Assembly: GCF_000717185.1 (NCBI RefSeq)
Contig: NZ_JNYE01000057.1
Location: 1-53,270, forward strand
Direction: 5' to 3'
DNA length: 53,270 bases
From: Kitasatospora phosalacinea
GTDB lineage: Bacteria > Actinomycetota > Actinomycetes > Streptomycetales > Streptomycetaceae
The notes beneath the pieces were generated by a model. That model saw only the letters and a program-made list of their open reading frames with translations, made no database searches and had not been told where the DNA came from. Positions 13,918 to 42,689 of this stretch are shown here, piece by piece (positions within the stretch are counted from its first letter, which is position 1; each line of letters opens with the position of its first letter). The position numbers were made by a program, and so were the translations under genes.

Positions 13918-14002
13918 GCTGCTCTCCAACGTGCTGAACAGGGGGAAGTGGTGTGGTCCGGCCCGGCCGGGCCGCCGGGGAGGTGCGCGGCCGGGCCGGG
14001 GC

Positions 14003-20876: not shown

Positions 20877-22202
20877 TCAGGCAATGGATCTGACGGCGTT
20901 GAGGAAGTCGTCGACGCCATGCACCTGCCGGTGAGGCTGGAAGACGGCACTGAGAGTGGTGATCTGCCGCAGGCAGCGTGTGGCACCGATACGTTGGGCG
21001 AGTGCGAGGGCTTGCCGGGCGGTGGCAGCGGCGTGGTCGATCTCGCCCTGGTGGGCCAGGCTCTCCGCCTCGTAGGTGAGGAAGACCGCGCGGGTCTTGT
21101 CACGGCTGGCCGGCAGCAGCCCGGTGCCCAGGGTGATCTGCTGGTGTGCGGGGCCGGGTTCGCCGAGGTCGATGAGACAGCGGCCGGTGTCGATGGCCAG
21201 GTCGGCGGGGCTCATCCACGAACACCAGGACGGTGGCGTGCCGGTGGCGGTGCTCAACGAGTGTTCGGCGGCGTCGATGGCGCGGCGGGCGGCGCGGGCT
21301 TCACCGGTCATCGCGTGGGCGCGGGCCTTACGCAGGCTCAGCAGGGAGCGGGCAGTGGGATCCTGGGTGCGGGTCAGGGCGTGGTCGAGGACTTCGGCGG
21401 CGGGGGTGCCGTGGCCGAGCCACATGCTCTGGTAGGCGAGGTCGGAGAGGATCCCGGCGCCGCGGTCGGTGTCGCCGGCGTGGTGGGCGGCGTGCAGGGC
21501 GGCGTTCCAGTAGTGGGCGGCGGCGGTGTGGTGCTCGTGGTCGAAGCGGATCCAGCCGAGGGTCTGGGCGAGCGAGGAAGCGAGGAGTTGCAGGCGGGTG
21601 CCGACCGGCTCGGTGTAGGCGGCGCCTTCCAGGAGGCCCACGACGGTGTCGTAGTAGCTGTCGAGGAGCTGAGCGGTGTGGCGCCAGTCCGGGGTCGCCA
21701 ATCCAGTGAGCTGCTGGACGCTGCTCTCCAGCCAGCTGACGAACTCGGGCGCGACGGTCTTCCCCTCGGTGGCGGCCTTGGCGAGGGTGGGGTCGAGGGT
21801 GGCCCAGTCAGCGGCGAGGGTGACGAGGACGGCGGGGGCGAGTCCGAGGACAGTACGGCGGTTGAGCATGGCGCGGCGTTGAGCCTCTCTGAGGGCGGCG
21901 ACCGTGTCTCCCGTTCCCAGGAGCATCGGAGGGGTCTCGTTGCCCGGCAGCCAGTAGGGCCAGCCGAGGAGGGGGACGAGGGCGGGGTCGACGCCGAAGG
22001 CTTCAGCCATCAGCTGCTGGGACCAGTCGCTCGGGGGATTCGCGCCGGGCCGCTCCCAGGAGTGCACCTGCTGCTTGGTGGTGCCGGAGCGGCGGTCGTG
22101 GCGGCGCGCGGCAGTCCGCATCGCCGCCGCGAGGTCGGCCAGCGACATGCCCGCCTCGGCCCTGGCCACGGCGATCGGGTGCTGGTGCTGCTGCACGTCC
22201 AC
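20877..22202 (-). CDS. XRE-family regulator with TPR-like C-terminus
   Basis: This 441-residue protein has an N-terminal XRE HTH: VARAEAGMSLADLAAAMRTAA, then TTKQQVHSWERPGANPPSDWSQQLMAEAFGVDPALV. Helical repeats follow, including AAAHYWNAALHAAHHAGDTDRGAGILSDLAYQ and TARQALALAQRIGA. Such proteins are common streptomycete pathway or developmental regulators, often encoded next to the genes they control. The GTG at 22202 faces away from the plus-strand operon that begins at 22369, with 166 bases between them. That gap contains CATGACG twice near 22255-22275. Confidence 0.8.
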   Translation of the reverse strand: MDVQQHQHPIAVARAEAGMSLADLAAAMRTAARRHDRRSGTTKQQVHSWERPGANPPSDWSQQLMAEAFGVDPALVPLLGWPYWLPGNETPPMLLGTGDTVAALREAQRRAMLNRRTVLGLAPAVLVTLAADWATLDPTLAKAATEGKTVAPEFVSWLESSVQQLTGLATPDWRHTAQLLDSYYDTVVGLLEGAAYTEPVGTRLQLLASSLAQTLGWIRFDHEHHTAAAHYWNAALHAAHHAGDTDRGAGILSDLAYQSMWLGHGTPAAEVLDHALTRTQDPTARSLLSLRKARAHAMTGEARAARRAIDAAEHSLSTATGTPPSWCSWMSPADLAIDTGRCLIDLGEPGPAHQQITLGTGLLPASRDKTRAVFLTYEAESLAHQGEIDHAAATARQALALAQRIGATRCLRQITTLSAVFQPHRQVHGVDDFLNAVRSIA

Positions 22203-27107: not shown

Positions 27108-27476
27108 GTGACGACTTCAGCGCCCCAGGCCCCGAAGGTTTCGGACTTCTACTGTGACGAAGCCCTGAACGGCCGTACGCCGGTGAAGGTGGTGGAGGAG
27201 ACCGGCACGGTGCTGGCGTTCGAGCACACCCGGCCGTCCTACCCGGTGCACATCGTGGTCGTCCCGAAGAAGCACATCCCGTCGCTGGTGAACCTGGGCG
27301 ACGGGACCGAGGAGGACCTGGCCGACGTCTTCCGGGTGGTGCGGACGGTCGCGGCGCGGGTGCGCGAGGAGTACGGAGCGGCGTGCGTGGTGACGAACGA
27401 GGGCGTGTACCAGGAGTCGAAGCACCTGCACGTGCACGTGCTGTTCCGAGGCGACCTTCCGGAGGGCCTGGCCTGA
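27108..27476 (+). CDS. HIT-family hydrolase/transferase
   Basis: This 122-residue protein carries the histidine triad HLHVHVLF near the C-terminus, plus PVHIVVVPKKHIPSLVNL, typical of HinT-like proteins. HIT proteins hydrolyse or transfer nucleoside monophosphates, including aminoacyl-adenylates and AMP-lysine-type phosphoramidates. It starts at a GTG with AAGGA 10 bases upstream. It converges with the MurG-like gene, leaving 12 bases between the stops. Beside an extra aminoacyl-tRNA synthetase, an activity on aminoacyl-nucleotides would be meaningful, but that is inference. Confidence 0.9.
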   Translation: MTTSAPQAPKVSDFYCDEALNGRTPVKVVEETGTVLAFEHTRPSYPVHIVVVPKKHIPSLVNLGDGTEEDLADVFRVVRTVAARVREEYGAACVVTNEGVYQESKHLHVHVLFRGDLPEGLA

Positions 27477-27488
27477 GTCCGGGGCGGT

Positions 27489-28583
27489 TCAGCCGGCGTG
27501 CCGGCCGCGCGGGCGGGCGAGGGCGATCGTCCGGGCGGCGATGTCCCGGGCGGTACGGCGAACGGCCTCGGGGTCGGGGCGGCAGCGGTTGCCGCCGAGC
27601 GCGGGCAGCAGCTGCTCGCAGGCGTGAAGGAGCGGCGTCCCGTCGGCCATCTCCTCGTCGGCGACGACGAGACAGGTGGCGTGCCGGGCGTACGCCTTCG
27701 CGTTGTCGAGCTGGTCGCCGCGGCTGACCGATGCCGGCAGCGGGACGAGGACGGCGGGCTTGGCCAGCGCGTGCAGCTCGGCCAGCGTGGTCGCTCCGGC
27801 CCGGCCGATGACGAGGTCGGCGAGCGTGAGGGCGTCGACCATGTCGTCGTGCAGGTACTCCTGCTGCCAGTAGCCGGGCGCGGAAGCCAGGGCGGGGTCG
27901 AGGTTGCCGCGACCGCAGATGTGGATGACGGAGAAGTGCCGGGTCAGGCCGCCGAGTTGGCGGCGCACGGCCTCGTTGACGCGCTGGGAGCCGCTGCTGC
28001 CGCAGAAGACGAGCAGCGCCGGCGGCCCGGCCGGGATGCCGAGGCGGGCGCGGAAGTCCTCGGGTCGGCCGTCGGCGAGGTCGTCGCGCAGGGGCAGGCC
28101 GGTGACCACCGTCTTGCGGCTGAGCCACCGGGGCAGGCCGGGGGTGTCCTCGGCGAGGAAGACGGTGGTGGCGAAGCGAGCGAGGATGCGGTTGGCCAGG
28201 CCGAGGGTGTGGTCGGACTCGTGGATGACCAGGGGGATGCGGGTGAGCCACGCGGCGATCCCCACCGGCACCGACACGTAGCTGCCCTTGGAGAAGACGA
28301 CGTCGGGCCTCTCGCGCCGCATCGCCCGCCAGGCGGCGAAGATCCCACGGGCGACGGTGAGCGGCATGGCGAGGTTGCTCCAGGAGCGGAAGCGCTGCAG
28401 GCCCGCCGAGGGGACGGCCGCGAGCCGGATGCCGGCCTTCGCCGCGAGGTCCGCTTCGATGCTTCCGGCTCGGCCGAAATACACGAGTTCGCATTCTGCG
28501 CGCACCAGTTCAGCGGCCACGGCCAGGGCGGGAACGACGTGACCGGCGCTCGCACCGCCGGTGATTCCAATTTTCCGATTCAC
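27489..28583 (-). CDS. MurG-like glycosyltransferase (GT28 family)
   Basis: This 364-residue protein aligns in layout with MurG: an N-terminal ITGGASAGHVVPALAVAAEL in place of GGGTGGHV, then DVVFSKGSYVSVPVGIAAWL, VIHESDHTLGLANRILA, and a C-terminal donor-binding block IGRAGATTLAELHALAKPAVLVPLP. MurG moves GlcNAc from UDP-GlcNAc to lipid I. This is a paralogue, since it is outside a division and cell wall cluster and has altered loops. It starts at a GTG. TACGCT about 8 bases upstream, with CTGAC 16 bases before it, may be a near-leaderless promoter. It lies downstream of the tRNA-like gene on the same strand. Confidence 0.85.
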   Translation of the reverse strand: MNRKIGITGGASAGHVVPALAVAAELVRAECELVYFGRAGSIEADLAAKAGIRLAAVPSAGLQRFRSWSNLAMPLTVARGIFAAWRAMRRERPDVVFSKGSYVSVPVGIAAWLTRIPLVIHESDHTLGLANRILARFATTVFLAEDTPGLPRWLSRKTVVTGLPLRDDLADGRPEDFRARLGIPAGPPALLVFCGSSGSQRVNEAVRRQLGGLTRHFSVIHICGRGNLDPALASAPGYWQQEYLHDDMVDALTLADLVIGRAGATTLAELHALAKPAVLVPLPASVSRGDQLDNAKAYARHATCLVVADEEMADGTPLLHACEQLLPALGGNRCRPDPEAVRRTARDIAARTIALARPRGRHAG

Positions 28584-28699
28584 GCGGTGGAGCGTAGCAG
28601 GTTCCCCGGAAAGTCAGGCCCGCTTCGAGAAATCCATCCGCCGCCTTTCCAGGATTAATTGACATCCCCGGAGCGGGGGCGGCGGGCCGGGAAACCCTA

Positions 28700-28731
28700 C
28701 TGCCCCGGGCCAGCAGGCAGGCCCGGGGCAG
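28700..28731 (-). terminator. Terminator hairpin of the tRNA-like gene
   Basis: CTGCCCCGGGCC (28700-28711) and GGCCCGGGGCAG (28720-28731) form a perfect 12-bp stem with an 8-base loop, starting about 36 bases past the tRNA-like CCA end. A second small hairpin (GCCGCC/GGCGGC, 28742-28757) precedes it. Together they would end a short tRNA transcript. Confidence 0.7.
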
Positions 28732-28767
28732 CGCATCTTCGGCCGCCGGACGGCGGCAGCGGGGCAG

Positions 28768-28842
28768 TGGTCGGGCTGGCTGGATTCGAACCAGCTCCTT
28801 GGCAACACTTATGCCATGCTCTATCCGTTGAGCTCCAGCCCG
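28768..28842 (-). tRNA. Free-standing tRNA-like gene with non-canonical anticodon loop
   Basis: On the minus strand a complete cloverleaf can be drawn. The acceptor is CGGGCTG/CAGCCCG (7 bp), the D-arm is GCTC/GAGC with loop AACGGATA, and the anticodon stem is TGGCA/TGCCA with loop TAAGTGT. The variable loop is AGGA, the T-arm is GCTGG/CCAGC with TTCGAAT, and A73 and an encoded CCA complete it. C1:G72 and A73 are hallmarks of bacterial tRNA-Pro and ProRS recognition. However, position 8 is G instead of U, position 33 is A instead of U, and the nominal anticodon is AGT, with G35 kept but G36 lost. Loss of U33 argues against normal decoding. It lies just after a complete extra ProRS gene. A non-translational, dedicated amino-acid carrier is my inference. 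Confidence 0.8.
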
Positions 28843-28853
28843 CAATGAAAGCA

Positions 28854-28883
28854 ACGCTAGCGCATTCCCGAAAGGGCCGTCAA
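28854..28883 (-). promoter_or_regulatory. Promoter of the tRNA-like gene
   Basis: TTGACG (minus strand, 28883-28878) and TAGCGT (28859-28854) are separated by 18 bases. The -10 box ends 11 bases before the tRNA 5' end at 28842, giving a leader of about 5 bases. This is a good housekeeping sigma-factor promoter, and it shows that the RNA can be made independently of the operon upstream. Confidence 0.7.
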
Positions 28884-28925
28884 TACCCAATCGCCAAGCC
28901 ATTTCAACCGAATTTCGGCATGGCA

Positions 28926-28962
28926 ATTCCGGCACTGGGCCTTTCTTTTCCAGTGCCGGAAT
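28926..28962 (-). terminator. Terminator at the end of the ProRS operon
   Basis: ATTCCGGCACTGG (28926-28938) and its exact complement (28950-28962) form a 13-bp stem with an 11-base loop, 20 bases after the ProRS stop on the minus strand. It separates the nine-gene operon from the tRNA-like gene. Confidence 0.8.
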
Positions 28963-28982
28963 CTCCGTGGTCGGCGGTCAGG

Positions 28983-30653
28983 TCAGGCGGCGCTCCTCAG
29001 CAGGGTGTGGAGCTGGTCGGAGGTGATGGTGCTGCGGCGGCCGGTCCAGCGGTCGATAGCCTCCAGCTCCCCGTCGGCGCGCTGGGGGGAGAGCACGAGG
29101 GCGGTGGGAACGCCGAGCGCCTGGGCGTAGTGGAACTTCTCCCCGGCGGGCAGGGGCCGGTCGTCGATGAGCAGACGCAGTCCGAGCTGCTGGAGCCGGC
29201 GGACGGTGCGGTCGGTGCGTTCCTGCTGCTCGGCCTGGTCGGAGCGCAGGACGACGAGGTGGACGTCGGCGGGGCCGGTGCCGGGCTTCCAGCGCAGGCC
29301 GTCGGCGTCCCGGTGGATGCCGGCCAGGGTCTGGATGCAGCGGGTGAGGCCGATGCCGGAGCAGCCCATGTAGGGGGTGCGCTGGATGCCGTTGTCGTCG
29401 GTGAAGGTCAGGCGCATCTTGCCGGAGTACTGGGTTCCGAGTTCGAAGACGTGCGCGACCTCGACGGCTTCGGTCGCCAAGTAGCGGCCGTCGGGGCAGC
29501 GCCCGCAGTGGAGGCCGTCGGCGGCGGTGTGGACGTCGGCGGGGTAGAGGGCGAGCGGCGCGAGGCCGGTGGCGCCGGTCCACGATGCTCCAGTGCGCAG
29601 ACTGTCGGGGCCGTCGGCGATGGTGAAGCGCTCCAGGTGGGTGACGGAGCGGTCGTGGAGGATGTCGATTCCGGCGCAGTCCCAGGGGGTGAGGGTGCCG
29701 GCGGCTTTCCCGAGCAGGGCGGGCAGTTGCTCGGGGTCGAGGAGTTCGACGTGGTGGCCGGGGCCGAGGGCGGCGGTGAGCTTGCGGACGCTGATGGTCA
29801 GGTCGGAGCGGATGCAGACCGCGGTAGGCCGGGTGGCGCTGTCCGGGCCGGTGACGGCGAAGACGATGACGTTGACGACGGGCTCGCTGCGGGGGGCGGT
29901 GCGGGGGAAGGCGGCGGTCAGGACGGTGCCGTCGCCGCGGTGGCCGCAGTGGTCGCAGGCGAGGATGCTGCTCTGGCCGAAGTCGGCGAGGACGAGGTGT
30001 TCGGTGGTGGGGCCGGCGGAGATGGCTCCGCCGTCGGCGGGGGCCTGGAAGACGCCGTGCAGGCCGATGCCGGTGAGGGCGTCGGTGCAGGCCCTGTTGA
30101 GCAGGCGGACCGACTCCAGCATGCCCGCGCGGTTGGGGTCGAAGGTGTAGGCGTCGGCCATGGTGAACTCGCGTCCGCGCATCAGGCCGCCGCGCGGCGA
30201 GAGTTCGTCGCGGAACTTCGTGGTGTTCAGGGCCAGGCGCACCGGCAGGTCGCGGTGGGAGCGCAGGTGGGAGCGGACGGTGGCGGTGGCCATCTCCTCG
30301 GAGGTCGGCGCGAGGCACATGTCGGCGCCGCCGACGCGGGTGGTGACCAGAGCGCCCTCGGCGGTGTAGACCTCCCACCGCCCGGACTCTTCCCACAGGG
30401 TCCTGCTCTGGAGAGTGGGCAGGGCGAGGCTGTTGAAGCCGTTGCGCTCGAAGGCGTCCCGGGTGATGCGGTCGAGCCGGTCGCGCACGCGCAGGCCGAG
30501 CGGGAGCAGGGTGTGCACGCCGGTGGTGTCGGTGCGGCCGACGAGGCCGAGGTGTTCGAGCAGGTCCTTCGTCGGGGCGGTGGGGTCGGTGGCGCGGGGG
30601 CGGGGTGCGGGGAACAGCCGGGAGGTGCGGATCGGGGCCGGTGCGGTGTTCAC
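28983..30653 (-). CDS. proS2-like: Prolyl-tRNA synthetase paralogue (bacterial type, complete)
   Basis: This 556-residue class II synthetase has all ProRS blocks. Motif 1 lies near LLPLGLRVRDRLDRITRDAF, motif 2 is TTKFRDELSPRGGLMRGREFTMADAYTFD, and an insertion domain of about 150 residues resembles the YbaK-type editing domain (RSDLTISVRKLTAALG). The block EVAHVFELGTQYSGKM precedes motif 3, MGCSGIGLTRCIQTL. The C-terminal anticodon-binding domain (DVHLVVLRSDQ, LIDDRPLPAGEKFHYAQ) is present. ProRS forms prolyl-tRNA-Pro using ATP. The catalytic Arg residues are kept, so it should be active. It ends a tightly coupled operon, starting with GTGA overlap, and is followed by the tRNA-like gene. It could be a dedicated charging enzyme for that RNA or a resistance isoform against a ProRS inhibitor. 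Confidence 0.92.
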   Translation of the reverse strand: MNTAPAPIRTSRLFPAPRPRATDPTAPTKDLLEHLGLVGRTDTTGVHTLLPLGLRVRDRLDRITRDAFERNGFNSLALPTLQSRTLWEESGRWEVYTAEGALVTTRVGGADMCLAPTSEEMATATVRSHLRSHRDLPVRLALNTTKFRDELSPRGGLMRGREFTMADAYTFDPNRAGMLESVRLLNRACTDALTGIGLHGVFQAPADGGAISAGPTTEHLVLADFGQSSILACDHCGHRGDGTVLTAAFPRTAPRSEPVVNVIVFAVTGPDSATRPTAVCIRSDLTISVRKLTAALGPGHHVELLDPEQLPALLGKAAGTLTPWDCAGIDILHDRSVTHLERFTIADGPDSLRTGASWTGATGLAPLALYPADVHTAADGLHCGRCPDGRYLATEAVEVAHVFELGTQYSGKMRLTFTDDNGIQRTPYMGCSGIGLTRCIQTLAGIHRDADGLRWKPGTGPADVHLVVLRSDQAEQQERTDRTVRRLQQLGLRLLIDDRPLPAGEKFHYAQALGVPTALVLSPQRADGELEAIDRWTGRRSTITSDQLHTLLRSAA

Positions 30654-31777
30654 GCGGCGGCTCCGATCGCGTCGCGGGTGATCTGGTCGAGGCGGTGGGC
30701 GCTGTGGACGATGCCGTAGCAGGAGCCGTTGGCCAGGCCCGCGGTGCTCAGCTCGGCGCGCAGCGTGCGGTCGGCGGCGAGTTTGTCGATCACCTGGGCG
30801 AGGTCGGCGGCGTCGCCGGGGGTGTAGGGCAGGCCGGCGGAGCCGAGGGTCTGGGTCATCCCGGCGACGTCGGAGTAGATGACGGGCAGGGCGTGGGCCT
30901 GGGCCTCGATGGCGACCAGGCCGAACGCCTCCAGGCCGGAGGTGGTGAACACGAAGGCGTCGAAGTCGGCGAAGCGCTGCCACAGGGCGTCGCGGGGCGC
31001 GAACGGCTCGAAGCGGACGCGGCTGGTGAGGCCGAGTTCCCGGGCCTGCTGCTGGAGGGTGTCCTGCTCGGGGCCGCTGCCGATGACGGTCAGCTCGTGC
31101 CGGTGTTCGGTGAGCGCCATCGCCTCGACGGCGGTGCGGGTGGACTTGTTGGCGTCCAGGCGGCCAGCGTGCAGCAGCCGCAGCGGGCGGGTGTCGGTGT
31201 GGGTGGCCGGGACGGTGCGGGCTGCGCGGGCCAGGGGGATGCCCCAGGGGACGAGGGCCATCTTGTCGCGGTAGCGGTGGCCGGTCAGGTCGCCGATCCG
31301 CTCGGCGAGGGCGTGGTTGGGGGCGACGACGGTGGTCGCGCCCGCGACGATCTCGGTGAGGACGTCGCGGGCGAGCGGGTCGGCGTCGGCCGCGATGACG
31401 TCGGTGCCGTGGGCGATGGCGACGACCGGGGTGCCCTGGGCGGCGCGCACGAAGGCGAGGGAGAGTCCGAAGCCGAGGTGCTGGGCGTGGATGACGTGCG
31501 GGCGGGCCCGGTCGAGGTGCTGGCGGACCTCGGCGGTCAGGGCGTCGACGTAGGCGGCGAAGCCGGGGCCGTAGGGGGCCTTGGTGGCCGCGGCGAGCAC
31601 GGTCTCCTCGAAGCCGTGCTGCCAGGCGGGGTCGGCGGGCGGGAGCGCGAGGAAGGTGGTGCGGGCGCGGTCGACCATCTCCCGGTACAGGTCGGAGCAG
31701 AAGATCATGGAGCCGCAGGAGGGTGCCAGCGGCAGGTCGATGCCGGTGGTGATCCGCGGCCGGGCGGCGGTGCTCAT
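30650..31777 (-). CDS. GT4-family glycosyltransferase
   Basis: This 375-residue GT-B protein has a C-terminal LLHAGRLDANKSTRTAVEAM (donor domain start) and TSGLEAFGLVAIEAQAHALPVI, the E-x7-E motif of GT4 retaining glycosyltransferases. The N-terminal domain has PHVIHAQHLGFGLSLAF and IAHGTDVIAADADPLARDV. The layout recalls MshA-like and other GlcNAc or hexose transferases. Its ATG overlaps the WbqC stop as ATGA, and its stop overlaps the ProRS GTG. Confidence 0.88.
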   Translation of the reverse strand: MSTAARPRITTGIDLPLAPSCGSMIFCSDLYREMVDRARTTFLALPPADPAWQHGFEETVLAAATKAPYGPGFAAYVDALTAEVRQHLDRARPHVIHAQHLGFGLSLAFVRAAQGTPVVAIAHGTDVIAADADPLARDVLTEIVAGATTVVAPNHALAERIGDLTGHRYRDKMALVPWGIPLARAARTVPATHTDTRPLRLLHAGRLDANKSTRTAVEAMALTEHRHELTVIGSGPEQDTLQQQARELGLTSRVRFEPFAPRDALWQRFADFDAFVFTTSGLEAFGLVAIEAQAHALPVIYSDVAGMTQTLGSAGLPYTPGDAADLAQVIDKLAADRTLRAELSTAGLANGSCYGIVHSAHRLDQITRDAIGAAA

Positions 31778-32520
31778 GCGGGTTGTCCTTCCTGCTGGAG
31801 GGAGTGGAGGTAGGTCGTGAGGCCGGTGCGCAGCAGGGCGGAGGTGCCGGCCCAGCCGATCGCGCTGGCGGTGTCGAGGACGGACAGGTTCGGCGTGAAG
31901 CCCTGCTGGGGCCACGCCTGCTCGTAGACCGGATGCCGGGGCAGGTACTCGTTCCAGGTGACGGCGATGCCGTCGGCGGCGAGGTCGGCGGGGTCGAGGT
32001 AGCCGCGGGTGCCGGAGCCGGCCCACAGCTCGTCGGCTCCGGCGGCCTGGCAGATGCGCACGATCCGGCCGGTGCGGTCGGCCGTCGGCTCGATCGGGAG
32101 CCGGGAGGTGAGGGTGAGTCGGGCGGGCGCGCCGAGGGCGGCGACCAGGCCCGTGGCCAGGTCGAGGTTGAGGTCGAGCAGCCACCGGTGCCCGGCGCCG
32201 AGCGCCGGGGCGAGGACCTGCAGTACTTCGTCCAGGTGGCGGCTGCGGCCGTAGGCGAGCCGCACCTGCCGGAGGATCTTGTTCGGGTCGAAGGCGTCGG
32301 CGATCCGCACGTCCTTGATCGGCTGTCCGTGGTTCTTGACCACCGGGACGGTCAGCCACTTCACGCCGTCCGGGGTCTTGATCCGGTTGCGGTTCTGGAA
32401 GCCGCCGTCCTCGTACTGGACGTTGTCGTACAGAGCGACGGTGGAGCACGCGAACAGGGCCTCGCAGAATCCCAACCACGGTGCGAACGGCGGCTGTTCG
32501 ATGTAGAGCCGGTTGTTCAC
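31774..32520 (-). CDS. WbqC-family protein
   Basis: This 248-residue protein starts NNRLYIEQPPFAPWLGFCEALFACSTVALYDNVQYEDGGFQNRN, followed by IKTPDGVKWLTVPV. These are the signature blocks of WbqC-like proteins. The family occurs in O-antigen, capsule and natural-product clusters and is thought to act in N-acylation or glycinylation-type modification of amino sugars, although its biochemistry is poorly known. It lies between the deacetylase and the glycosyltransferase with overlaps on both sides. Confidence 0.85.
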   Translation of the reverse strand: MNNRLYIEQPPFAPWLGFCEALFACSTVALYDNVQYEDGGFQNRNRIKTPDGVKWLTVPVVKNHGQPIKDVRIADAFDPNKILRQVRLAYGRSRHLDEVLQVLAPALGAGHRWLLDLNLDLATGLVAALGAPARLTLTSRLPIEPTADRTGRIVRICQAAGADELWAGSGTRGYLDPADLAADGIAVTWNEYLPRHPVYEQAWPQQGFTPNLSVLDTASAIGWAGTSALLRTGLTTYLHSLQQEGQPA

Positions 32521-33215
32521 CGGTCCTCCTCGGGGGCGAGCAGGGTGATCAGGGAGGTCTCGAACGCCTCGAAGCAGCGTCCGGCGGCGGCACGGACCGG
32601 GGCGAGGCTCCATGCGGCCTCGGCGGCGCGGTGGCGGGTGAAGTCCTCGCCGAGGTACCAGCGGCCGGCCTGGCTGCGGTGGGCGGCGAGGGCCTTGACC
32701 TTGTCGGGGAGCAGGTCGGTGATGTCCACCAGAACGGTGGGGCGGAAGTCGCCCCTGGGGGCATGGGGCTGGCCGTGCAGGATCGTGGCGCAGGTGCCGA
32801 TCCGGGTAGCAGCGTTGACGGCGGCCTGCGCGACGGCGAGGTGGTCCTGGTGGTCAGGCCCGGCGTGCAGGCTGTGGGTGATCAGGACCGTGCAGCCCAG
32901 GCGGGCGAGTTCCACCTCGATACGGGAGACCAGTTCGCGGTCGGGCACCAGGGCGCCGTCGGTGAAGCCGAGGGTGACGAGGTCGATGCCGCTGCCGGCG
33001 TAGGAGGCCGCGGATTCGTCCGTCCGCTCCAGGCCAGTGAGGCTGACGCCTCGGTCCCGGTCGGTGAGGGAGACGCCGTTGACCCCGGTGGTGACAACGA
33101 CGACGGTGACGGCCGCACCCTGCTCCCGGTAGCGGAGCAGGGTGCCGTAGCACATCAGCTCGGCGTCGTCGGGGTGCGCGACCACCGCGACAACCTGCTC
33201 ACGCGGCGGCACCAC
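32517..33215 (-). CDS. PIG-L family N-acetylglucosamine-type deacetylase
   Basis: This 232-residue protein has the zinc motif AHPDDAEL (His14, Asp16, Asp17) and a distal HAGPDHQDH with the third zinc His. The family includes MshB (mycothiol), BtrD-type aminoglycoside deacetylases and teicoplanin deacetylases. The first of two tandem GTG codons (33215) is 6 bases after GAGGAGG and is chosen. It overlaps the end of the upstream dCTP-deaminase-like gene by 17 bases. It probably frees an amino group on a sugar attached by one of the cluster glycosyltransferases. Confidence 0.88.
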   Translation of the reverse strand: MVPPREQVVAVVAHPDDAELMCYGTLLRYREQGAAVTVVVVTTGVNGVSLTDRDRGVSLTGLERTDESAASYAGSGIDLVTLGFTDGALVPDRELVSRIEVELARLGCTVLITHSLHAGPDHQDHLAVAQAAVNAATRIGTCATILHGQPHAPRGDFRPTVLVDITDLLPDKVKALAAHRSQAGRWYLGEDFTRHRAAEAAWSLAPVRAAAGRCFEAFETSLITLLAPEEDR

Positions 33216-33759
33216 GGCAGTCCTCCTCTCGGAAGTCGCGCCAGATCTGCGAGGGCTCGGGCAGGGTGCTGCCCTGGTACTTGCCGCGGTACAGCTCCCG
33301 GCGGCCGGTGGGCACCCAGAAGGTCACCTGGCCGATCCGCTGGCCCGGGTAGACGCGCACGGGCTGCACAGCGTGGAGCTGCAGGGTCAGGCGGCCGAGC
33401 GAGCCGAGGTCGATCAGGTCGGCGGTGCAGTGGACGAACAACCCGGTGCGGGCGGTGGAGGAGCGGGCCCGGATGATCGGCACGAAGTGCTCGGAGCCGA
33501 TCGTCTCGGCGGTGGAGGCGAGGTAGATCCGGCCGGGGCGCAGGACCATGCCCTCCTCGGGGATGGTGGAGCGCGTGAACCGGTTGGGCCGGCGGCAGTC
33601 GAGGGTGCGCCCGCCCCACCAGCGCCGCCGGTACCAGCCGATGTCCGAACTGAGGTGGAAGTCGTAGGAGTTGGGGCTCAGGAGCGAGGTGTCGAAGGGG
33701 CTGATGGTGATCCGCCCCTCCTCGACCTCCGCTCCGATCTGGGGGCCGGTGAGGATCAC
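33199..33759 (-). CDS. dCTP deaminase/dUTPase-fold protein, catalytic Glu replaced by Gln
   Basis: This 186-residue protein follows Dcd: MILTGPQIGAEVEEGRITISPFD, NSYDFHLSSDIGW, a central RARSSTARTGLFVHCTADLID, and GQRIGQVTFW. In active dCTP deaminases the segment after the RSS motif carries an essential Glu (TLEL type). Here it reads GRLTLQLHAV, so the Glu is Gln. The protein is probably inactive alone and may act as a binding subunit. It overlaps its paralogue (33756-34310) by GTGA, which suggests a hetero-oligomer. Confidence 0.82.
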   Translation of the reverse strand: MILTGPQIGAEVEEGRITISPFDTSLLSPNSYDFHLSSDIGWYRRRWWGGRTLDCRRPNRFTRSTIPEEGMVLRPGRIYLASTAETIGSEHFVPIIRARSSTARTGLFVHCTADLIDLGSLGRLTLQLHAVQPVRVYPGQRIGQVTFWVPTGRRELYRGKYQGSTLPEPSQIWRDFREEDCRGAAA

Positions 33760-34310
33760 GCGGCGCTCACCTCCGGAAAGGGCACGGCTGCGCTGCCGGC
33801 CAGGGCGTGGGGAGCGAACGGGGCGGGGTCGCTGAGGGTGCCGTAGTACCCGCCGTAGGGCATGTGGTCGCCGACCGCGTCCCAGAAGGAGACCTGGCCG
33901 ATGACCATGCCCGCGTACACCCGGAGCGGCTGGGTGACGACGATCTCCAGCGTCCAGCGGTGGACCGCGCCGAGCTGGGCGAGGTCGGCGGAGATCTGGG
34001 TGAACAGCCCCAGGCGGCCGACGGAGGAGCGGCCGATCAGGCTGGTGACGAAGCGGTCGGAGCCGATGCGCTCCACGGTCGAGCCGAGGTAGACCCGGCC
34101 GGGCCTCAGCCGGTAGCCGCGGGCCGGGATCGTGATGGTCCGGGTCGGCGGGCTGGTGCGCGGGTCGACGGGCGTGCGGGTGAACACCTTGAGCGTCTCG
34201 CCGAGCCGGTAGCCGTGGCTGTTCGGGTTCGTGTACTGCGGCAGGAACGGCTCGATGGTGATCTGGCCGGCCCGCACCGCGGCAGCGATGGCGGGACCGG
34301 TGAGGATCAC
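33756..34310 (-). CDS. dCTP deaminase-like protein
   Basis: This 184-residue protein is a paralogue of the neighbour at 33199-33759. It has ILTGPAIAAAVRAGQITIEPFLPQYTNPNSHGYRL, the substrate motif IGRSSVGRLGLF, and RWTLEIVVTQP, where the catalytic Glu is present. Dcd enzymes deaminate dCTP to dUTP as trimers. In a secondary cluster it may act on another cytosine or purine nucleotide. It is coupled by GTGA overlaps to the TauD-like gene before it and its paralogue after it. Confidence 0.82.
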   Translation of the reverse strand: MILTGPAIAAAVRAGQITIEPFLPQYTNPNSHGYRLGETLKVFTRTPVDPRTSPPTRTITIPARGYRLRPGRVYLGSTVERIGSDRFVTSLIGRSSVGRLGLFTQISADLAQLGAVHRWTLEIVVTQPLRVYAGMVIGQVSFWDAVGDHMPYGGYYGTLSDPAPFAPHALAGSAAVPFPEVSAA

Positions 34311-35113
34311 CGCACACCGCCCTGCACGTAGGTCTGCCGCAGCAGCCGCCGCCGTCCGGGCTCGATCGCCTCCTGGCCTGCGCCGAGCGGCATCCGGCCG
34401 TGGGCCCAGCGAAGCTGGTCGAAGACGAGCAACTGCCCGGGGCGGAGCCGGACCGTGGTGCGGTGGCGCAGCGCCGCGTCGGCGAGGGCACCGAACGCGG
34501 CGGCCGTCTCCTGCCGGGCCGCGTCGGTGCCCTCCAGCAGTTCGCCGCGCAGCAGGTGCGGGCGCATCTTGCTGGTGAACCGGATCGGCAGACCCGGCTC
34601 CAGCTCCTGAGGCAGGACCGCGAAGCGCTCCAGCGGGTCGCCGACGCCGTGCACCCCCTGGTCGGTCCAGTAGGAGAAGACCGGCTGCTGTAGCAGCGCC
34701 CGTTCGGCGTCGCCGAGTTCGGCGGCGGCCGCCCACAGGTCGGCCAGGGCCGAGGCCCCGCCGCCCGCCGGGTCCTCGCGCTCGCAGTACAGCGCGATGT
34801 AGCGCGGGATGAGGTCGCGGTCGACCAGGTCGACGTGCAGCTGGTTCTCCCCGGTGCCGTGGGTGCGGCCCGGGTCGGCCTCGGTGCGCACCTGGAGGCT
34901 GCTCCAGCAGCCGTCGACCGGGTAGACGGCCAGCACGGGGCCCAGCGCGGACAGCAGGCCGAGCGCGAGTTCCTGGTTGAGCCGGTGGTCGGCCGGGTCG
35001 AAGGCGACCAGCACCCGCCCGTCGCCTTCGCCGGTGATGTGCTCGGCGAAGGCGCGCGGCGCGGTGGGGCCGTCGAGGAAACCGGCGGCGGGCAGCGGCA
35101 GCAGGTCGGTCAC
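34307..35113 (-). CDS. TauD/TfdA-family Fe(II)/2-oxoglutarate-type oxygenase
   Basis: This 268-residue protein has the metal motif LHVDLVDRD (His93, Asp95) and the distal His238 in RWAHGRMPLG. RRRLLRQTYV follows and could supply the 2-oxoglutarate-binding Arg. Length and motif spacing fit clavaminate synthase-like or TauD enzymes, which hydroxylate or desaturate amino acids and related compounds. The GTG at 35113 follows AAGGAGG and overlaps the phosphoesterase stop. It is a typical tailoring enzyme. Proline or a sugar/nucleoside carbon are possible targets, but this is a guess. Confidence 0.82.
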   Translation of the reverse strand: MTDLLPLPAAGFLDGPTAPRAFAEHITGEGDGRVLVAFDPADHRLNQELALGLLSALGPVLAVYPVDGCWSSLQVRTEADPGRTHGTGENQLHVDLVDRDLIPRYIALYCEREDPAGGGASALADLWAAAAELGDAERALLQQPVFSYWTDQGVHGVGDPLERFAVLPQELEPGLPIRFTSKMRPHLLRGELLEGTDAARQETAAAFGALADAALRHRTTVRLRPGQLLVFDQLRWAHGRMPLGAGQEAIEPGRRRLLRQTYVQGGVR

Positions 35114-36312
35114 GATGCCTCCTTGACGTGTTCGGTGAGCAGGCCGCGCAGGGTGCGCGGCGAATCGAGCGCCCTGGCCGGCAGTCCGAGGCGCTCGGCC
35201 AGGTAGGCGGTGGTGGCGACGGTGCCGGGGCGGCTGGCCGTCCCGGCGGTGACGGGGCTCTCCCCCAGGGCCTCGGCCAGGGCGGCGACCTGCTCGGCGG
35301 TGCGCGGGCCGTCCAGGACGACCAGGGCGGTGTCGAAGGGTGCGGCGGCCACGAGCGCCTGCCGGTCGACGTGCCGGGGCAGGCCGGTGCGCAGGGTGGC
35401 GAGGTTGAGGACGAAGGCGTCGGCACCCGCCGCGCGCCGACACCGCTCGGCAACGAGTTCGGCGAGTCGGCGCCGGTTGTCCACCGGCGCAGCCAGGTCG
35501 CCGATCGCCGCGCTGCCCCATGCCCGGAACGCGCCGACCGCCTCCCGTACGTAGGGCGGCACCAGCCCGCGCGGAGCCTCGCGGCCTCCGGTGTACTCCA
35601 TGCTGAACGAGGGCTCGGCCGGGCCGAGTTCGATCCGCAGCAGGCCGGTACCGCACTCGGGCGGCTTGACGACGTACCGCGGCGGGATCGCCCAGTGGCC
35701 CGTCGGGCTGTGGCAGTGCCCGGCCACCACGATCTCCAGCGGGCCGTCGGCAAGCTGGAGCGCCACGTCCGCCTCGAAGCCGCTGTGGCTCAGCCCGACC
35801 ACCACCTCGGCACCCGCCTCCAGCAGCCGGTCCCGCTCGGCAGCCAGCAGCGCCGGGGTCGGCTCCTCGAACACGAACCCGTCCCGCTCGGCGACCGGGA
35901 CCGCTCCGAACGCCTGGGCCCCGAGCACGCCCACGACCCCGATGCGCCGACCGGCCGCCTCCAGCAGCAGCCCCCGCTCCCACCGCCCGGCGAAGGCCGG
36001 CGGCGGGGTCAGGTTCGCGCACACCACCGGCGGGAACCGCTCGGGCTCGTGCAACCGCATCAGGTCGGCCAGGTCGTGGTTGCCGGGCACCACGGCGTCG
36101 TACAGGTCGGCGAGCAGCCGCTCCTCCGTACGTCCCCGGGAGTACTCGTGGAAGGCGCTGCCGCCGAAGAAGTCGCCGACGTCCACGACCAGCGCGCCCT
36201 GCTCGCGCAGCGCCCGGACCTCGGCCAGCATCCCCGTGCCGTCCGGCACGGCAGAGTGGAAGCAGCCCGTCGCCGCCACCGTCACGGTGTTGGTGGCCAG
36301 TCCCCTGTCCAC
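35110..36312 (-). CDS. Metallophosphoesterase / 5'-nucleotidase-like protein
   Basis: This 400-residue protein has the calcineurin-like blocks VVDVGDFFGG, VVPGNHDLADL, GLSHSGFEAD and VVAGHCHSPTG, then a C-terminal 5'-nucleotidase-like domain (VDNRRRLAELVAERCRRAAGAD). In the family the first block is usually NDxHG. Here it is ATGCFHS, so one metal-ligand Asp is replaced by Cys. It lacks an export signal, unlike classical periplasmic 5'-nucleotidases. The start may be the GTG at 36312 (with GAGGTG upstream) or the one at 36321. A role in removing a phosphate or nucleotide from a cluster intermediate is plausible. Confidence 0.82.
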   Translation of the reverse strand: MDRGLATNTVTVAATGCFHSAVPDGTGMLAEVRALREQGALVVDVGDFFGGSAFHEYSRGRTEERLLADLYDAVVPGNHDLADLMRLHEPERFPPVVCANLTPPPAFAGRWERGLLLEAAGRRIGVVGVLGAQAFGAVPVAERDGFVFEEPTPALLAAERDRLLEAGAEVVVGLSHSGFEADVALQLADGPLEIVVAGHCHSPTGHWAIPPRYVVKPPECGTGLLRIELGPAEPSFSMEYTGGREAPRGLVPPYVREAVGAFRAWGSAAIGDLAAPVDNRRRLAELVAERCRRAAGADAFVLNLATLRTGLPRHVDRQALVAAAPFDTALVVLDGPRTAEQVAALAEALGESPVTAGTASRPGTVATTAYLAERLGLPARALDSPRTLRGLLTEHVKEAS

Positions 36313-36314
36313 GC

Positions 36315-36959
36315 TCAGCACCTCGTGATCGACACGACGCGCAGCGGGACGGCCGCCGGGGGCCAGAAGTCGTGGCGGGAGATCCCGTCGACCTCCTCCA
36401 GCCGCAGGCCGGCGCCGAACCAGTCCCCCGCGGCGGTGTGGTCGGCCGTGGCCGCGGGCAGCACGGCCAGGCCGCGCGCGACCTTGGCGGTGGAGCCGAA
36501 CACGTGGGCGGCGATCCCGAAGGCCAGCGGCCAGTCGAACGGGAGGATCGACAAGAACACCGTGCCAACGGGCAGCTCGCGGTCGAGGTCGACCGCCCGG
36601 ACGTCCGACAGGAGCGGCCGGGCCCGCTCTCCGTACGGTTCGAGCGCCGCGCACAGCGCCTCGGCCACCCGCGGGTCCTTCTCCACCGCCCAGATCCGGT
36701 GCCCGGCCCGCGCGACCGCGGCGGACAACGTGCCCAGGCCCGCCCCCACCTCCAGCACCGCGTCCCCGGCCCGCAGGCCCGCCAGCTCCAGCAGCCGCGA
36801 CGCGATCCCGGGAGAGCGCAGGAAGTGCTGGCCCAAGTCCTCCCTCGCCCGGAAGTCGCTACCCCGCAGTTCCGCGACGACCGGACTCTCCCCCGCCGAC
36901 GGCGCAACCGCGCCAGGGGGCACGACCTCCGGGCTTCGCTCCCGGACAGAGATCACCAT
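36315..36959 (-). CDS. KsgA/Erm-like RNA adenine methyltransferase family protein
   Basis: This 214-residue protein has the family start REDLGQHFL (the Q-H-F box), a SAM loop LEVGAGLGTLSAAVARAG, VEKDPRVAEAL, and the motif IV position FLSILPFDWPLAF. Family members N6-methylate adenines in rRNA and usually have N-L-P-F/Y at motif IV. Here Asn is replaced by Ile. It is also short of the usual C-terminal domain. It may methylate a different adenine-containing substrate, or none. The ATG at 36959 follows GAGGAGGAG. It is the first gene of the nine-gene operon. Self-resistance by rRNA methylation is the classical alternative. Confidence 0.78.
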   Translation of the reverse strand: MVISVRERSPEVVPPGAVAPSAGESPVVAELRGSDFRAREDLGQHFLRSPGIASRLLELAGLRAGDAVLEVGAGLGTLSAAVARAGHRIWAVEKDPRVAEALCAALEPYGERARPLLSDVRAVDLDRELPVGTVFLSILPFDWPLAFGIAAHVFGSTAKVARGLAVLPAATADHTAAGDWFGAGLRLEEVDGISRHDFWPPAAVPLRVVSITRC

Positions 36960-37312
36960 GGTTCTCCTCCTCAAGATCTGAGCCGAAGCGCTCCCGAGAG
37001 AGCTGCTCCGCTGCCTGCGGGCCGCATCCGCAATCGCCCTGCAGGCCGGCCGCTCGAAGTCACCCCGACGCCGAACAGCGCCCGTGGCGCGCCAACTACG
37101 CTAAAAAGCAACGATGTTGGGAAACACTCACCGGCAGTACGGGTTGCCGCTCCCAGCGCCGTCGGCAGTGCCGAGCGGGTACCCCACAACACACCCCCCG
37201 GCGGCCGACGGGCAGGGGTCGACGCCGCGAGCGTCGTGAACTCCGCGATGTCAGCGCGAAAAGACGCGAATTGGCGCACGCAGCAGGGGTTTTGACGTAC
37301 CGTCGCCGCGTG
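36960..37312. promoter_or_regulatory. Divergent promoter region between the nine-gene operon and a regulator
   Basis: This 353-base gap separates the minus-strand methyltransferase start from the plus-strand regulator. On the minus strand, TAGCGT near 37099-37104 matches the -10 box of the tRNA-like gene, but no good -35 is visible. On the plus strand, TTGGCG (about 37271) and GACGTA lie about 17 bases apart, close to the regulator start. No gene is seen here. A shared regulatory region is likely given the divergent layout. Confidence 0.4.
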
Positions 37313-39866: not shown

Positions 39867-40949
39867 TCACCCGTCGGCTCGACCGTAGCGCAGGCGGTCC
39901 AGGTCGCGGCGGGACGTCGGGGAGATCAGGGCGCCGTCGAGGAGCTGGGGCGTGAATGTGTCGAACGCCTGCGCTGCGTCCGGTGCTGCGTGCGGCAGCC
40001 ACGGGTGCAGGTGCAGCAGGGTGCTGATCGAGTGGACGTACAGGTCGACGGTGCCGGGGGCGAGGTGGAAGGAGGAGACGAGGGTGCGGTAGAGGCGGAT
40101 CGGGTCCCAGCTCGCCGGGTCGGGGCGGTGCATGAAGGTGTCGTCGGTGCTGTCGGCCGGCATCGCGCCGAGCCACAGCGCCCAGTAGGCGAGGTTGGCG
40201 AGTTCGCCGTGCTCATCGTCCAGCAGCGCGGTGGAGATGAAGTGCCGCAGCTGGTCGGGATCGCCTTGGCGAGCGGCGACGGTGGCGACGGTGCGGGCCT
40301 CGATGGAGCGGGGGCCGTGGCCGCGTCGGCCGAGTGCGGGCCGCATGCCGCGCAGGGCCTGCTCGGACCAGGCGGAGGCGTCGGGCGCGGTGTCGTACGA
40401 GGCGAGGTAGAGGGCCTGGCGGTGCAGCAGCCCTCCGTGATCGTCGGCGGCGGCGTGCTCGGCGGTGTCGCGCAGGTTGGCGAAGAAACGGGCGCGGTCG
40501 GCCGCGGGCAGCAGGGGGCCGGGGCGGGCCGGGCCGCGCCGGGGCCGCGAGGTGTGGGCGGCCAGGGCCGGCGGCGGGGTGCCGCGCAGCGCCCAGGCGA
40601 CCAGGAGGGCGGAGTCGCGGGGCTGGACCCACCCGGCCAGCGGGTGGCGGCCGGTCTCGGCGGGCGGGTCGAGGACGGCGGCCAGGATGCGGTCGGCGTC
40701 CAGCGCCGGGCCGCTGTGCGCGAGCAGCATCGGGTCGGCGCCGAGCAGGGCCAGGCGGCGGCGCAGGTCGAGGTGGTCGCCCGCGCGAAGGTGGGGCAGC
40801 GGACGGCGGCCGGACTCCCAGCCCTGCACGGTGCCGACGTCCAGGCCCAGAGCCTCCGCCAGTCCCTCCTGGGTGCGCGGGATGCTCTCGCGGGCCAGCC
40901 GAAGAAGGTAACCGGAGACCAGCCCGACCGACGGTGCCTTTGCGGACAT
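39867..40949 (-). CDS. XRE-family regulator
   Basis: This 360-residue protein has the N-terminal HTH LRLARESIPRTQEGLAEALGLDVGTVQGWESGRRPLPHLRAG, followed by a long helical region without clear repeats. The ATG at 40949 follows AAGGAG by 7 bases. The upstream in-frame GTG (40985) lacks such a site. It is encoded between the HD hydrolase and the second MurG-like gene, all on the minus strand. Confidence 0.82.
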   Translation of the reverse strand: MSAKAPSVGLVSGYLLRLARESIPRTQEGLAEALGLDVGTVQGWESGRRPLPHLRAGDHLDLRRRLALLGADPMLLAHSGPALDADRILAAVLDPPAETGRHPLAGWVQPRDSALLVAWALRGTPPPALAAHTSRPRRGPARPGPLLPAADRARFFANLRDTAEHAAADDHGGLLHRQALYLASYDTAPDASAWSEQALRGMRPALGRRGHGPRSIEARTVATVAARQGDPDQLRHFISTALLDDEHGELANLAYWALWLGAMPADSTDDTFMHRPDPASWDPIRLYRTLVSSFHLAPGTVDLYVHSISTLLHLHPWLPHAAPDAAQAFDTFTPQLLDGALISPTSRRDLDRLRYGRADG

Positions 40950-41147
40950 GCCACTCTCCTTCGCACGAAGATTCGCGACTTTCACTCCTGCCTGCCGACG
41001 TTCGCGGTGCTCGTAGTGTCTGTACCTGTCCGTTGGCCGCCACAGAGTGTGCCGTTGCGCACCCGCCTGTCGGCAACAGAGGTAGCGGCACCCTGTACCG
41101 GCGGCGAGTTTTTCTCAGCTTTCTTGATTTCTAGAGTAGTTGGCACA

Positions 41148-42306
41148 TCATGGGCCTGGCCGGGAAATGAGGCCAGCAGCGTCGAGCACCAGGTCGACCA
41201 GGCGCTGAGCAGCGTACGGGTGGCCGTGCTCGCGGGAGCAGGCCGCCATCGCGCTGCGCCGGGCCGAGTCGGCGAGCAGCGGGACCAGCGCCTCCCGCAG
41301 GACGTCCGCGGTGACGTCGCCGGTCAGGGCGACGGCCGCGCCTGCGTCCTGGAGGTGGACGGCGTTGTGGGCCTGCTCGTTGCCCGCCGAGGTGGGCAGC
41401 GGGACGAACACCGCTGCCTTGCCGAGCGCGGTCAGCTCCGCGAGCGTTCCGGCGCCGCTGCGGCTGACCACCACGTCCGCCAGCGCCAGCACGTCCGGCA
41501 GCTCCGCCCCCGTGTAGCCGGTCAGCAGGTAGCGGGCGGCCAGGTGAAGCGGCATCGCATCGGTCGCCCCACGCAGCGTCGCCTCGTTGGCCGGGCCGCA
41601 CTGGTGGATCACGTTGGCGTGCTCCAGACGGCAGGATTCCCAGCACCAGGGCGTTGATCTGCACCGAGCCCTGCGCGCCGCCGGTGACGTAGACCGTCGG
41701 CAGCGAGCGATCGAAGCCGTAGAGGCCCAGCACGGCCACCGCCTTGTCAGCTCGGCCGGCCAGCACCGCCGGGCGTACCGGATTGCCGGTCACCACCGCG
41801 GTGCGGCGGGCGGACGCGGGCAGCAGCGGCAGGGTGGACTCCGAGGAGACCGCGACCCGGGTCGCCGCGCGGGCCAGCACCTTGTTCGCCAGCCCGAGGC
41901 GCACCGTCTGCTCATGAACGACCAGCGGCACCCCGCAGGAGCGCGCCGCCAACCCGACCGGCACGGCCACGTATCCGCCGGTGGCCAGCACCACGTCCGG
42001 TGCGAACTCCGTGATCAGGGTGCGGGCCTGCCAGGTACCCAGCGGCACCTGGCCCATGTCCCGCACGTTCGCCGGGGAGATCATCCTGAGCGGGTTCGAG
42101 GAGCGCCGGACCTTCCCGGTGGCGACCGCCGCGAACCGGATCCCCTCCGCCGGGGCGACCCGCGCCTCCAGACCGGCGGCCGTGCCGATCCACAGCACCT
42201 CCACCGTCCGGCCTTGGCCGGCCAGCCGCTCCTGCAACGCCCGCACCGCCGTCAGCGCCGGGTAGGTGTGCCCGCCCGTACCGCCGCCCGTCACGATCAG
42301 TCGCAA
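41148..42306 (-). pseudogene. Second MurG-like glycosyltransferase, frameshifted
   Basis: The N-terminal part (LRLIVTGGGTGGHTYPALTAVRAL, DVVLATGGYVAVPVGLAARSCGVPLVVHEQ, VYVTGGAQGSVQINALVLGILP) is a clear MurG. The C-terminal part (VIHQCGPANEATLRGATDAM, VVSRSGAGTLAELTALGKAAVFVPLPTSAGNEQAHNA) continues in a different frame. One extra base or a two-base loss near 41625-41635, just after ILP, accounts for it. Both halves keep strong family motifs, so the lesion is recent or a sequencing error. The GGGTGGH loop is more canonical than that of the MurG-like gene at 27489. The start is unclear, and I use the TTG at 42306 directly before the motif. Confidence 0.8.
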
Positions 42307-42689
42307 TGGTCCGCCCTGCCCGCGCGCGCCATGCCCTCTCCCCTCGGCCGCCAACAGGCTGCTCAGCTGACGGCTGATCGGTCCACGACGGAGCAGTAAC
42401 TTTACGTCGCCGATCGGTTTCCGAGAGTACATGCTTCTATTCCGGCTCCACCGGATCCGCCTGACCGGCACAGCCTTCCCCTGCGGCCCCGCCGATCACC
42501 GCGCGGAGACGGGACGAGCGTCTCTGCCGTTCTGCCGCGAGGGTCACCCTGCGGCGTGTGATCGAGATCTCTGGGGCAGAACTCGCTTCTGCAGGAGGGG
42601 TCTTGCTACGTTCCGTGGTCCAACCGAACACAGGTGACCCCGGCGGTGCGCTAACACCCCGGGGTCCGGCAACAGGAGCGATCACTCCC
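42307..42689. other. Divergent intergenic region
   Basis: This 383-base gap lies between the second MurG-like gene (minus) and the Rep-type HTH gene (plus). The plus-strand frame of the HTH protein extends back to 42558, but that extra peptide lacks family similarity. I see no convincing gene, promoter box or terminator. It marks the join between the cluster and the plasmid-like backbone. Confidence 0.4.

What the first reader, a model, noticed from the sequence alone, without database searches (positions are those of the whole stretch)
28768..30653. Extra prolyl-tRNA synthetase beside a non-canonical tRNA that keeps proline acceptor identity
Seen: a complete ProRS gene is followed on the same strand, after a terminator, by a 72-base cloverleaf plus encoded CCA. 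The RNA has C1:G72 and A73, as in bacterial tRNA-Pro, and G35. It lacks U8 and U33, and its anticodon loop is TAAGTGT. Known: C1:G72, A73, G35 and G36 are ProRS determinants, and U33 is needed for the decoding turn. Non-decoding tRNA-like RNAs exist in other bacteria, such as tRNA-Other of Bacillus cereus. Inference: the pair charges an amino acid onto an RNA that feeds a biosynthetic pathway instead of the ribosome.
Basis: partly seen in the sequence, partly recalled or inferred. Interest (0 to 1): 0.95.

Follow-up and report, generated by a model that had tools for sequence, protein, structure and literature searches.

The report
Private tRNA pair for metabolite synthesis
A tRNA-shaped RNA that lacks a base normally needed to read codons sits beside its own divergent proline-type loading enzyme in a soil bacterium's operon of metabolite-type genes, and the pair likely carries an amino acid into a small molecule instead of into proteins.

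Summary
In detail: a complete ProRS-like gene (30653-28983, -) is followed by a 72-nt cloverleaf plus CCA (28842-28768, -) with C1:G72, A73 and G35, without U8 and U33. It is a conserved module: in 14 of 14 distinct ProRS-paralogue loci found, the RNA lies just downstream of the gene behind a promoter-like TTGAC-N17/18-TAnnnT (12 of 14 exact in TTGAC), with compensatory stem changes and invariant A33-A34-G35; the anticodon itself (AGC or AGU) is not kept. The enzyme belongs to a separate clade (support 100/100) with class II core residues intact, but with the editing lysine, the G72-contacting arginine and pocket residues changed.

The parts
28768..28842 (-). tRNA-like RNA, 72 nt + CCA; C1:G72, A73, A33, A34-G35-U36, A15, 4-nt variable region
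28983..30653 (-). ProRS-like synthetase, 556 aa, own clade, editing lysine lost
28854..28883 (-). promoter-like TTGACG-N18-TAGCGT, 11 nt upstream of the RNA, counterpart in 14 of 14 loci
   Evidence: own scan with random-position control; not found by the stricter scan
28926..28962 (-). hairpin between ProRS stop and the RNA's promoter, no U tract
   Evidence: sequence; not scored as terminator
28700..28731 (-). G+C-rich hairpin downstream of the RNA, no U tract
   Evidence: sequence
27489..28583 (-). MurG-like glycosyltransferase (GT28), below the murG cut-off
30650..31765 (-). GT4 glycosyltransferase, MshA/BshA/EpsE-like
31774..32520 (-). WbqC family protein (PF08889), predicted BshC-like fold; candidate aminoacyl transferase/ligase
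32517..33200 (-). PIG-L deacetylase, best NCBIfam match BshB1 (below cut-off)
33199..33759 (-). dCTP deaminase-like 2
33762..34310 (-). dCTP deaminase-like 1
34307..35113 (-). TauD-family dioxygenase, clavaminate-synthase-like
35110..36288 (-). metallophosphoesterase, weak 5'-nucleotidase (NadN) similarity; start uncertain
36315..36974 (-). small RrnaAD-type (KsgA/Erm-like) methyltransferase; start uncertain
27108..27476 (+). HIT-family protein, convergent, conserved neighbour
20877..22202 (-). XRE-type regulator; homologue lies directly upstream of the operon in several relatives

Best explanation
The ProRS-like enzyme and the tRNA-like RNA occur together in all 14 distinct loci found and are predicted to form a private pair: the enzyme would load an amino acid (likely proline or a small relative) onto an RNA that likely does not decode, and the charged RNA would donate it to a small molecule. 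Shown: conserved linkage, operon content, RNA structure and its lost U33, retained synthetase core, lost editing residues, and joint absence of both parts from one operon. Inferred: a GT4 enzyme attaches GlcNAc to an acceptor that the dCTP-deaminase-like, nucleotidase-like and dioxygenase genes suggest is a modified (deoxy)nucleoside; PIG-L frees the amine; the amine is then acylated by the amino acid from the private RNA, as MshC and BshC acylate GlcN conjugates with cysteine. The leading candidate for the transfer step is the WbqC protein with its BshC-like predicted fold. The order of steps and the amino acid are not known.
Against: No charging or expression data. WbqC is retained in L063, which lacks the pair, and WbqC of pair-less and pair-bearing loci differ consistently at only 2 conservative positions, so WbqC need not use the charged RNA. 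Foldseek alone gave BshC only E 0.099, prob 0.82, and no match at E <= 0.001; sequence profiles show no WbqC-BshC similarity (0 of 68 members hit a BshC model). R144 is lost in 79 of 79 although the RNA keeps C1:G72. The host's own housekeeping ProRS also deviates at two of the compared pocket positions (208 V, 445 S), so pocket changes alone do not prove a changed amino acid. 2 of 14 RNAs lack an encoded CCA, one of them in a decayed locus.
Confidence: 0.6

Rival explanations
1. The pair makes a charged RNA for the pathway, but WbqC activates and attaches its own amino acid with ATP, and an enzyme not identified here uses the charged RNA for a second acylation.
Against: No other gene of the conserved operon looks like an acyltransferase.
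Confidence: 0.2
2. The charged RNA donates its amino acid to a cell-wall precursor handled by the MurG-like enzyme, as Fem-type transferases do, perhaps for self-protection.
For: A MurG-like GT28 gene follows the RNA in 12 of 12 longer loci examined (searches lists) and pseudo-tRNAs for peptidoglycan exist in staphylococci (recalled; mentioned in PMC3399842).
Against: MurG-like also stays in L063 without the pair; no Fem-type transferase in the operon; dCTP-deaminase-like and dioxygenase genes are unexplained.
Confidence: 0.1
3. Regulatory RNA or stress sensor, like tRNA-Other of Bacillus cereus, with the synthetase setting its charge.
For: tRNA-Other is a pseudo-tRNA outside translation with regulatory effects (PMC3399842 passages).
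Against: Fixed place inside an operon of enzymes and joint absence with its synthetase from one operon; no complementary target looked for here.
Confidence: 0.08
4. A recoding pair: the RNA decodes ACU or GCU with proline or another amino acid.
For: ARAGORN calls anticodons AGU or AGC.
Against: A33 in 14 of 14, anticodon not conserved among orthologous loci, A15:A48 instead of a Levitt pair in the 10 without an extra base.
Confidence: 0.05
5. ProRS copy as self-resistance to a ProRS inhibitor, with an unrelated relic tRNA beside it.
For: Duplicate synthetases serve as self-resistance in other clusters (recalled).
Against: The copy is very divergent, lost R144 and editing residues, and the RNA is kept structurally in 14 of 14 loci.
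Confidence: 0.05

Closest known systems
Aminoacyl-tRNA-dependent natural product biosynthesis (valanimycin VlmL/VlmA, PEARLs, cyclodipeptide synthases; names partly recalled, review PMC12945691 seen as listing and find result only)
   Same: Amino acid of a charged tRNA likely goes into a small molecule; paralogous synthetases can sit in clusters.
   Different: Those use host decoding tRNAs as far as I recall; here the cluster carries its own likely non-decoding tRNA. 'dedicated tRNA', 'tRNA gene', 'tRNA-like' and 'pseudo-tRNA' occur 0 times in that review.
tRNA-Other of Bacillus cereus
   Same: tRNA-shaped RNA outside translation that can be poorly charged in vitro (PMC3399842 passages).
   Different: Trp anticodon and lysine, island-flanking, no dedicated synthetase gene beside it in the passages seen; here C1:G72/A73 with a ProRS paralogue inside an operon.
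Bacillithiol and mycothiol pathways (BshA/B/C, MshA/B/C)
   Same: GT4 + PIG-L deacetylase + BshC-fold protein; MshC is a synthetase paralogue (recalled).
   Different: All matches are below family cut-offs; WbqC is half the size of BshC and has no sequence similarity to it; extra nucleoside-type genes and a private tRNA.
Bacterial ProRS (prokaryote type with INS domain)
   Same: Class II core, INS-type insertion and anticodon-binding domain.
   Different: Below the proS cut-offs; editing K279, R144 and pocket residues replaced.

Membership tests
Decoding tRNA | Cloverleaf matching the tRNA covariance model | tested here: met
   52.3 bits vs gathering 29; only 1 of 7 relatives at gathering with fast filters
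Decoding tRNA | U33 in the anticodon loop | tested here: not met
   A33 in 14 of 14; U33 in 47 of 47 parsed host tRNAs
Decoding tRNA | Conserved anticodon among orthologues | tested here: not met
   AGU in some loci, AGC in others
tRNA-Pro | C1:G72 and A73 | tested here: met
   14 of 14; determinants A73, G72, G35, G36, G37 listed in PMC9976931 (passages)
tRNA-Pro | G35 and G36 | tested here: not met
   G35 14 of 14, position 36 C or U in 14 of 14
Housekeeping ProRS (TIGR00409/PRK09194) | Score over curated cut-off | tested here: not met
   285.2 vs 306.7 and 329.8 vs 558
Housekeeping ProRS (TIGR00409/PRK09194) | Catalytic core residues | tested here: met
   T109, E111, R140, C445 in 79 of 79
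Housekeeping ProRS (TIGR00409/PRK09194) | INS editing lysine K279 | tested here: not met
   0 of 79; 39 of 40 housekeeping
Housekeeping ProRS (TIGR00409/PRK09194) | Charging of a tRNA with proline | not testable with these tools
   needs in vitro aminoacylation
Bacillithiol-type pathway | BshA, BshB equivalogs | tested here: not met
   BshA 56.2 bits vs 273.7, BshB1 53.9 vs 182.5; related superfamilies only
Bacillithiol-type pathway | BshC homologue | tested here: inconclusive
Aminoacyl-tRNA-dependent biosynthesis | Enzyme that uses charged tRNA as donor | not testable with these tools
   WbqC is only a candidate
Pseudo-tRNA (tRNA-Other type) | Absent from polysomes, chargeable | not testable with these tools
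   needs RNA work

The most novel reading that the evidence does not exclude
A private, non-decoding synthetase/tRNA pair whose charged RNA is the amino-acid donor for a BshC-fold (WbqC) enzyme that acylates a glucosamine-nucleoside conjugate. It would be a genetic code-free tRNA channel for one metabolite, and would suggest that BshC-type enzymes, whose cysteine-ligation mechanism was still described as unknown in the 2015 review seen, can take their amino acid from RNA.
Probability: 0.3. Interest if true: 0.95.

Novelty: new variant of a known kind. Interest (0 to 1): 0.82.

Why it matters
Charged tRNAs are known donors in natural product synthesis, but a cluster that brings both its own synthetase and its own non-decoding tRNA would be a ready-made orthogonal pair evolved for chemistry instead of decoding. 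It gives a test bed for how a tRNA is kept away from the ribosome, a possible source of new orthogonal pairs, a marker for mining unknown metabolites, and a handle on BshC, for which a 2015 review says that activity was never shown in vitro and the ligation mechanism is unknown (PMC4360819, passages).

Tried and rejected
Decoding tRNA or recoding pair: rejected on A33 in 14 of 14 and the unconserved anticodon. Chance tRNA-like sequence: rejected on 14 of 14 linkage and covariation. Other Rfam matches at 28000-31000 (ZTP riboswitch, CRISPR repeat, Plastid-ycf2 on the opposite strand and others) are all far below their gathering scores and dropped. The + strand ORF 35128-36981, first kept as a gene of unknown function, is antisense to the annotated phosphodiesterase and MTase of the plasmid relative and was dropped. 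WbqC-BshC kinship by sequence: not found with one BshC sequence or with Pfam. A specific sequence change in WbqC of pair-less loci: only two conservative columns. Literature searches for the system listed no paper that describes it; only listings were seen for most.

Limits of counts: searches scored 3 first-look candidates per genome and seven, so rates are lower bounds. Residue counts used window plus P0001-P0066 and P0068-P0079 (79); P0067 and P0080-P0083 were dropped as partial. At H371 (recalled as E. coli H369) the printed counts cover 78 of 79, none His. One search used a wrong frame for the host housekeeping ProRS and was redone. E. coli numbering of C443 and H369, VlmL/VlmA, MshC and staphylococcal pseudo-tRNAs are recalled.

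Full report
Observation. The ProRS-like ORF (30653-28983, -) and the tRNA-like RNA (28842-28768, -) are as described. ARAGORN calls the RNA tRNA-Thr(AGU); the Rfam tRNA model gives 52.3 bits (gathering 29). The host genome (8.6 Mb, 340 contigs; likely Kitasatospora, inferred from relatives) has a normal ProRS at C2:89055-90731 with 555 bits, while the window copy stays below the cut-off. The host has tRNA-Pro with UGG, CGG and GGG anticodons, and Thr and Ala tRNAs. Of 47 distinct host tRNAs that could be parsed, 47 have U33, and C1:G72 with A73 occurs only in the three tRNA-Pro; one further C1:G72 case is a Trp-type tRNA with U73. The nearest host tRNAs match 58-60 positions of the 75.

Conservation. 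A genome-contig scan gave 7 Streptomyces loci plus one distant MAG locus without a tRNA. 7 of 7 have a tRNA-like RNA downstream of the ProRS gene. Further loci came from a plasmid (L049) and from whole-genome searches. In all, 18 locus records hold 14 distinct RNAs, the repeats being the same places in two collections. In 14 of 14: C1:G72, A73, A15, A33, A34, G35, U38; position 36 is C or U and 37 is G or A. U8 is missing only in the window and G167. An encoded CCA is present in 12 of 14; MnatMP-M17 and the decayed G339 locus lack it. Covariation: 5 pairs changed on both sides, 8 cells, 99.3% paired, against 0-1 pairs and at most 48.3% when slid. One anticodon-stem mismatch lies in the G339 locus, whose ProRS has an internal stop and partial coverage, so RNA and gene decay together there.

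Expression unit. A TTGAC-like hexamer, 17-18 nt spacer and TAnnnT lie 11-21 nt upstream in 14 of 14; 12 of 14 have TTGAC exactly. Of 2,800 random 120-nt stretches from the same loci 0.7% reach the lowest observed score. The stricter scan reports no promoter and no terminator. Hairpins flank the RNA in the window, without U tracts.

Rarity. The paralogue is in 4 of 394 sampled genomes of the family, 7 of 392 of the genus of G339 and 1 of 35 of the genus of G118. WbqC of this type is in 4 of 394, 6 of 392 (all six among the seven with the ProRS, the seventh being the decayed G339) and 3 of 70 of the host genus. The exact anticodon-arm pattern is in 3 of 317 family genomes (G000, G167, G118), each with the ProRS paralogue; four single-mismatch hits contain no tRNA by ARAGORN.

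Operon. By tblastn with the annotated plasmid relative, the order MTase, phosphodiesterase, TauD, DCD1, DCD2, PIG-L, WbqC, GT4, ProRS, RNA, MurG-like is found in the window, L001-L007, L049 and L051; L050 was cut by the fetched stretch and L052 is decayed. HIT follows convergently. The two dCTP-deaminase-like proteins, a phosphoesterase with weak NadN similarity and, in L063, a YfbR-like deoxynucleotidase suggest nucleoside chemistry; this is inference.

Joint absence. G187 (contig of 30424 bases, the length given for Kitasatospora aureofaciens P0177 and P0241) has the operon from PDE to GT4, MurG-like and HIT, with an FGE-sulfatase-family gene between GT4 and MurG-like, no ProRS hit, no MTase hit, no tRNA by ARAGORN or by cmscan to E 0.5, and no pattern match in the whole genome. 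This is one locus. Five WbqC proteins on FGE contigs without a listed ProRS form, with two unassigned ones, one branch at 100/99, so the pair was gained or lost few times.

Enzyme. The ProRS clade is one side of a branch at 100/100 among 37 rows. T109, E111, R140 and C445 (Aeromonas numbering) are kept in 79 of 79. K279 is gone in 79 of 79, R144 is S (62) or A (17), H208 is kept in none, F210 is H in 79, Y446 is S in 79, E218 is Q in 77 and kept in one. In 40 housekeeping rows R144, H371 and Y446 are in 40 and K279 in 39. R144 contacts G72 in E. coli ProRS (PMC10164551, passages). So the enzyme looks active, unedited and re-tuned; which amino acid it takes is open, and mischarging-prone ProRS chemistry (Ala, Cys) leaves cysteine as one candidate (inference).

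Judgement. Pair for non-ribosomal use: well supported by comparison, untested at the bench. Feeding this operon's metabolite: likely. WbqC as the user: plausible (about 0.3-0.4), weakened by L063. No listing describes such a pair, within an open-licence library only.

Noticed in passing
host genome G000:C16:65006-66757: Three tRNA genes called Ser(GCU), Gly(GCC) and Trp(CCA) share a similar body, and the Ser one has no long variable arm; they look like a second, odd tRNA set.
   Followed up: no
L063:6509-7261: FGE-sulfatase family gene between GT4 and MurG-like in the pair-less locus; on three other contigs FGE and ProRS occur together.
   Followed up: partly
window 36315-36974: Small KsgA/Erm-like methyltransferase accompanies the pair and had no hit in L063; it could be self-protection or could modify the RNA.
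   Followed up: partly
L049:25634-26638: A second amino acid--tRNA ligase-related gene beside an LD-carboxypeptidase and two radical SAM genes near the plasmid operon.
   Followed up: no
window 12403-16911: Mur-ligase-like, glutamine-synthetase-like and amino acid permease genes in a row.
   Followed up: no
window 41131-42471: A second, weaker MurG/GT28-like gene.
   Followed up: no
window 39867-40985: HTH regulator 65% identical to the one next to the operon in L063, so the window carries counterparts of both regulator types.
   Followed up: no
proteins P0027, P0028, P0033, P0058, P0162: Source names of several pair or WbqC proteins include plant-pathogenic Streptomyces such as S. turgidiscabies, S. 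ipomoeae and S. scabiei.
   Followed up: no
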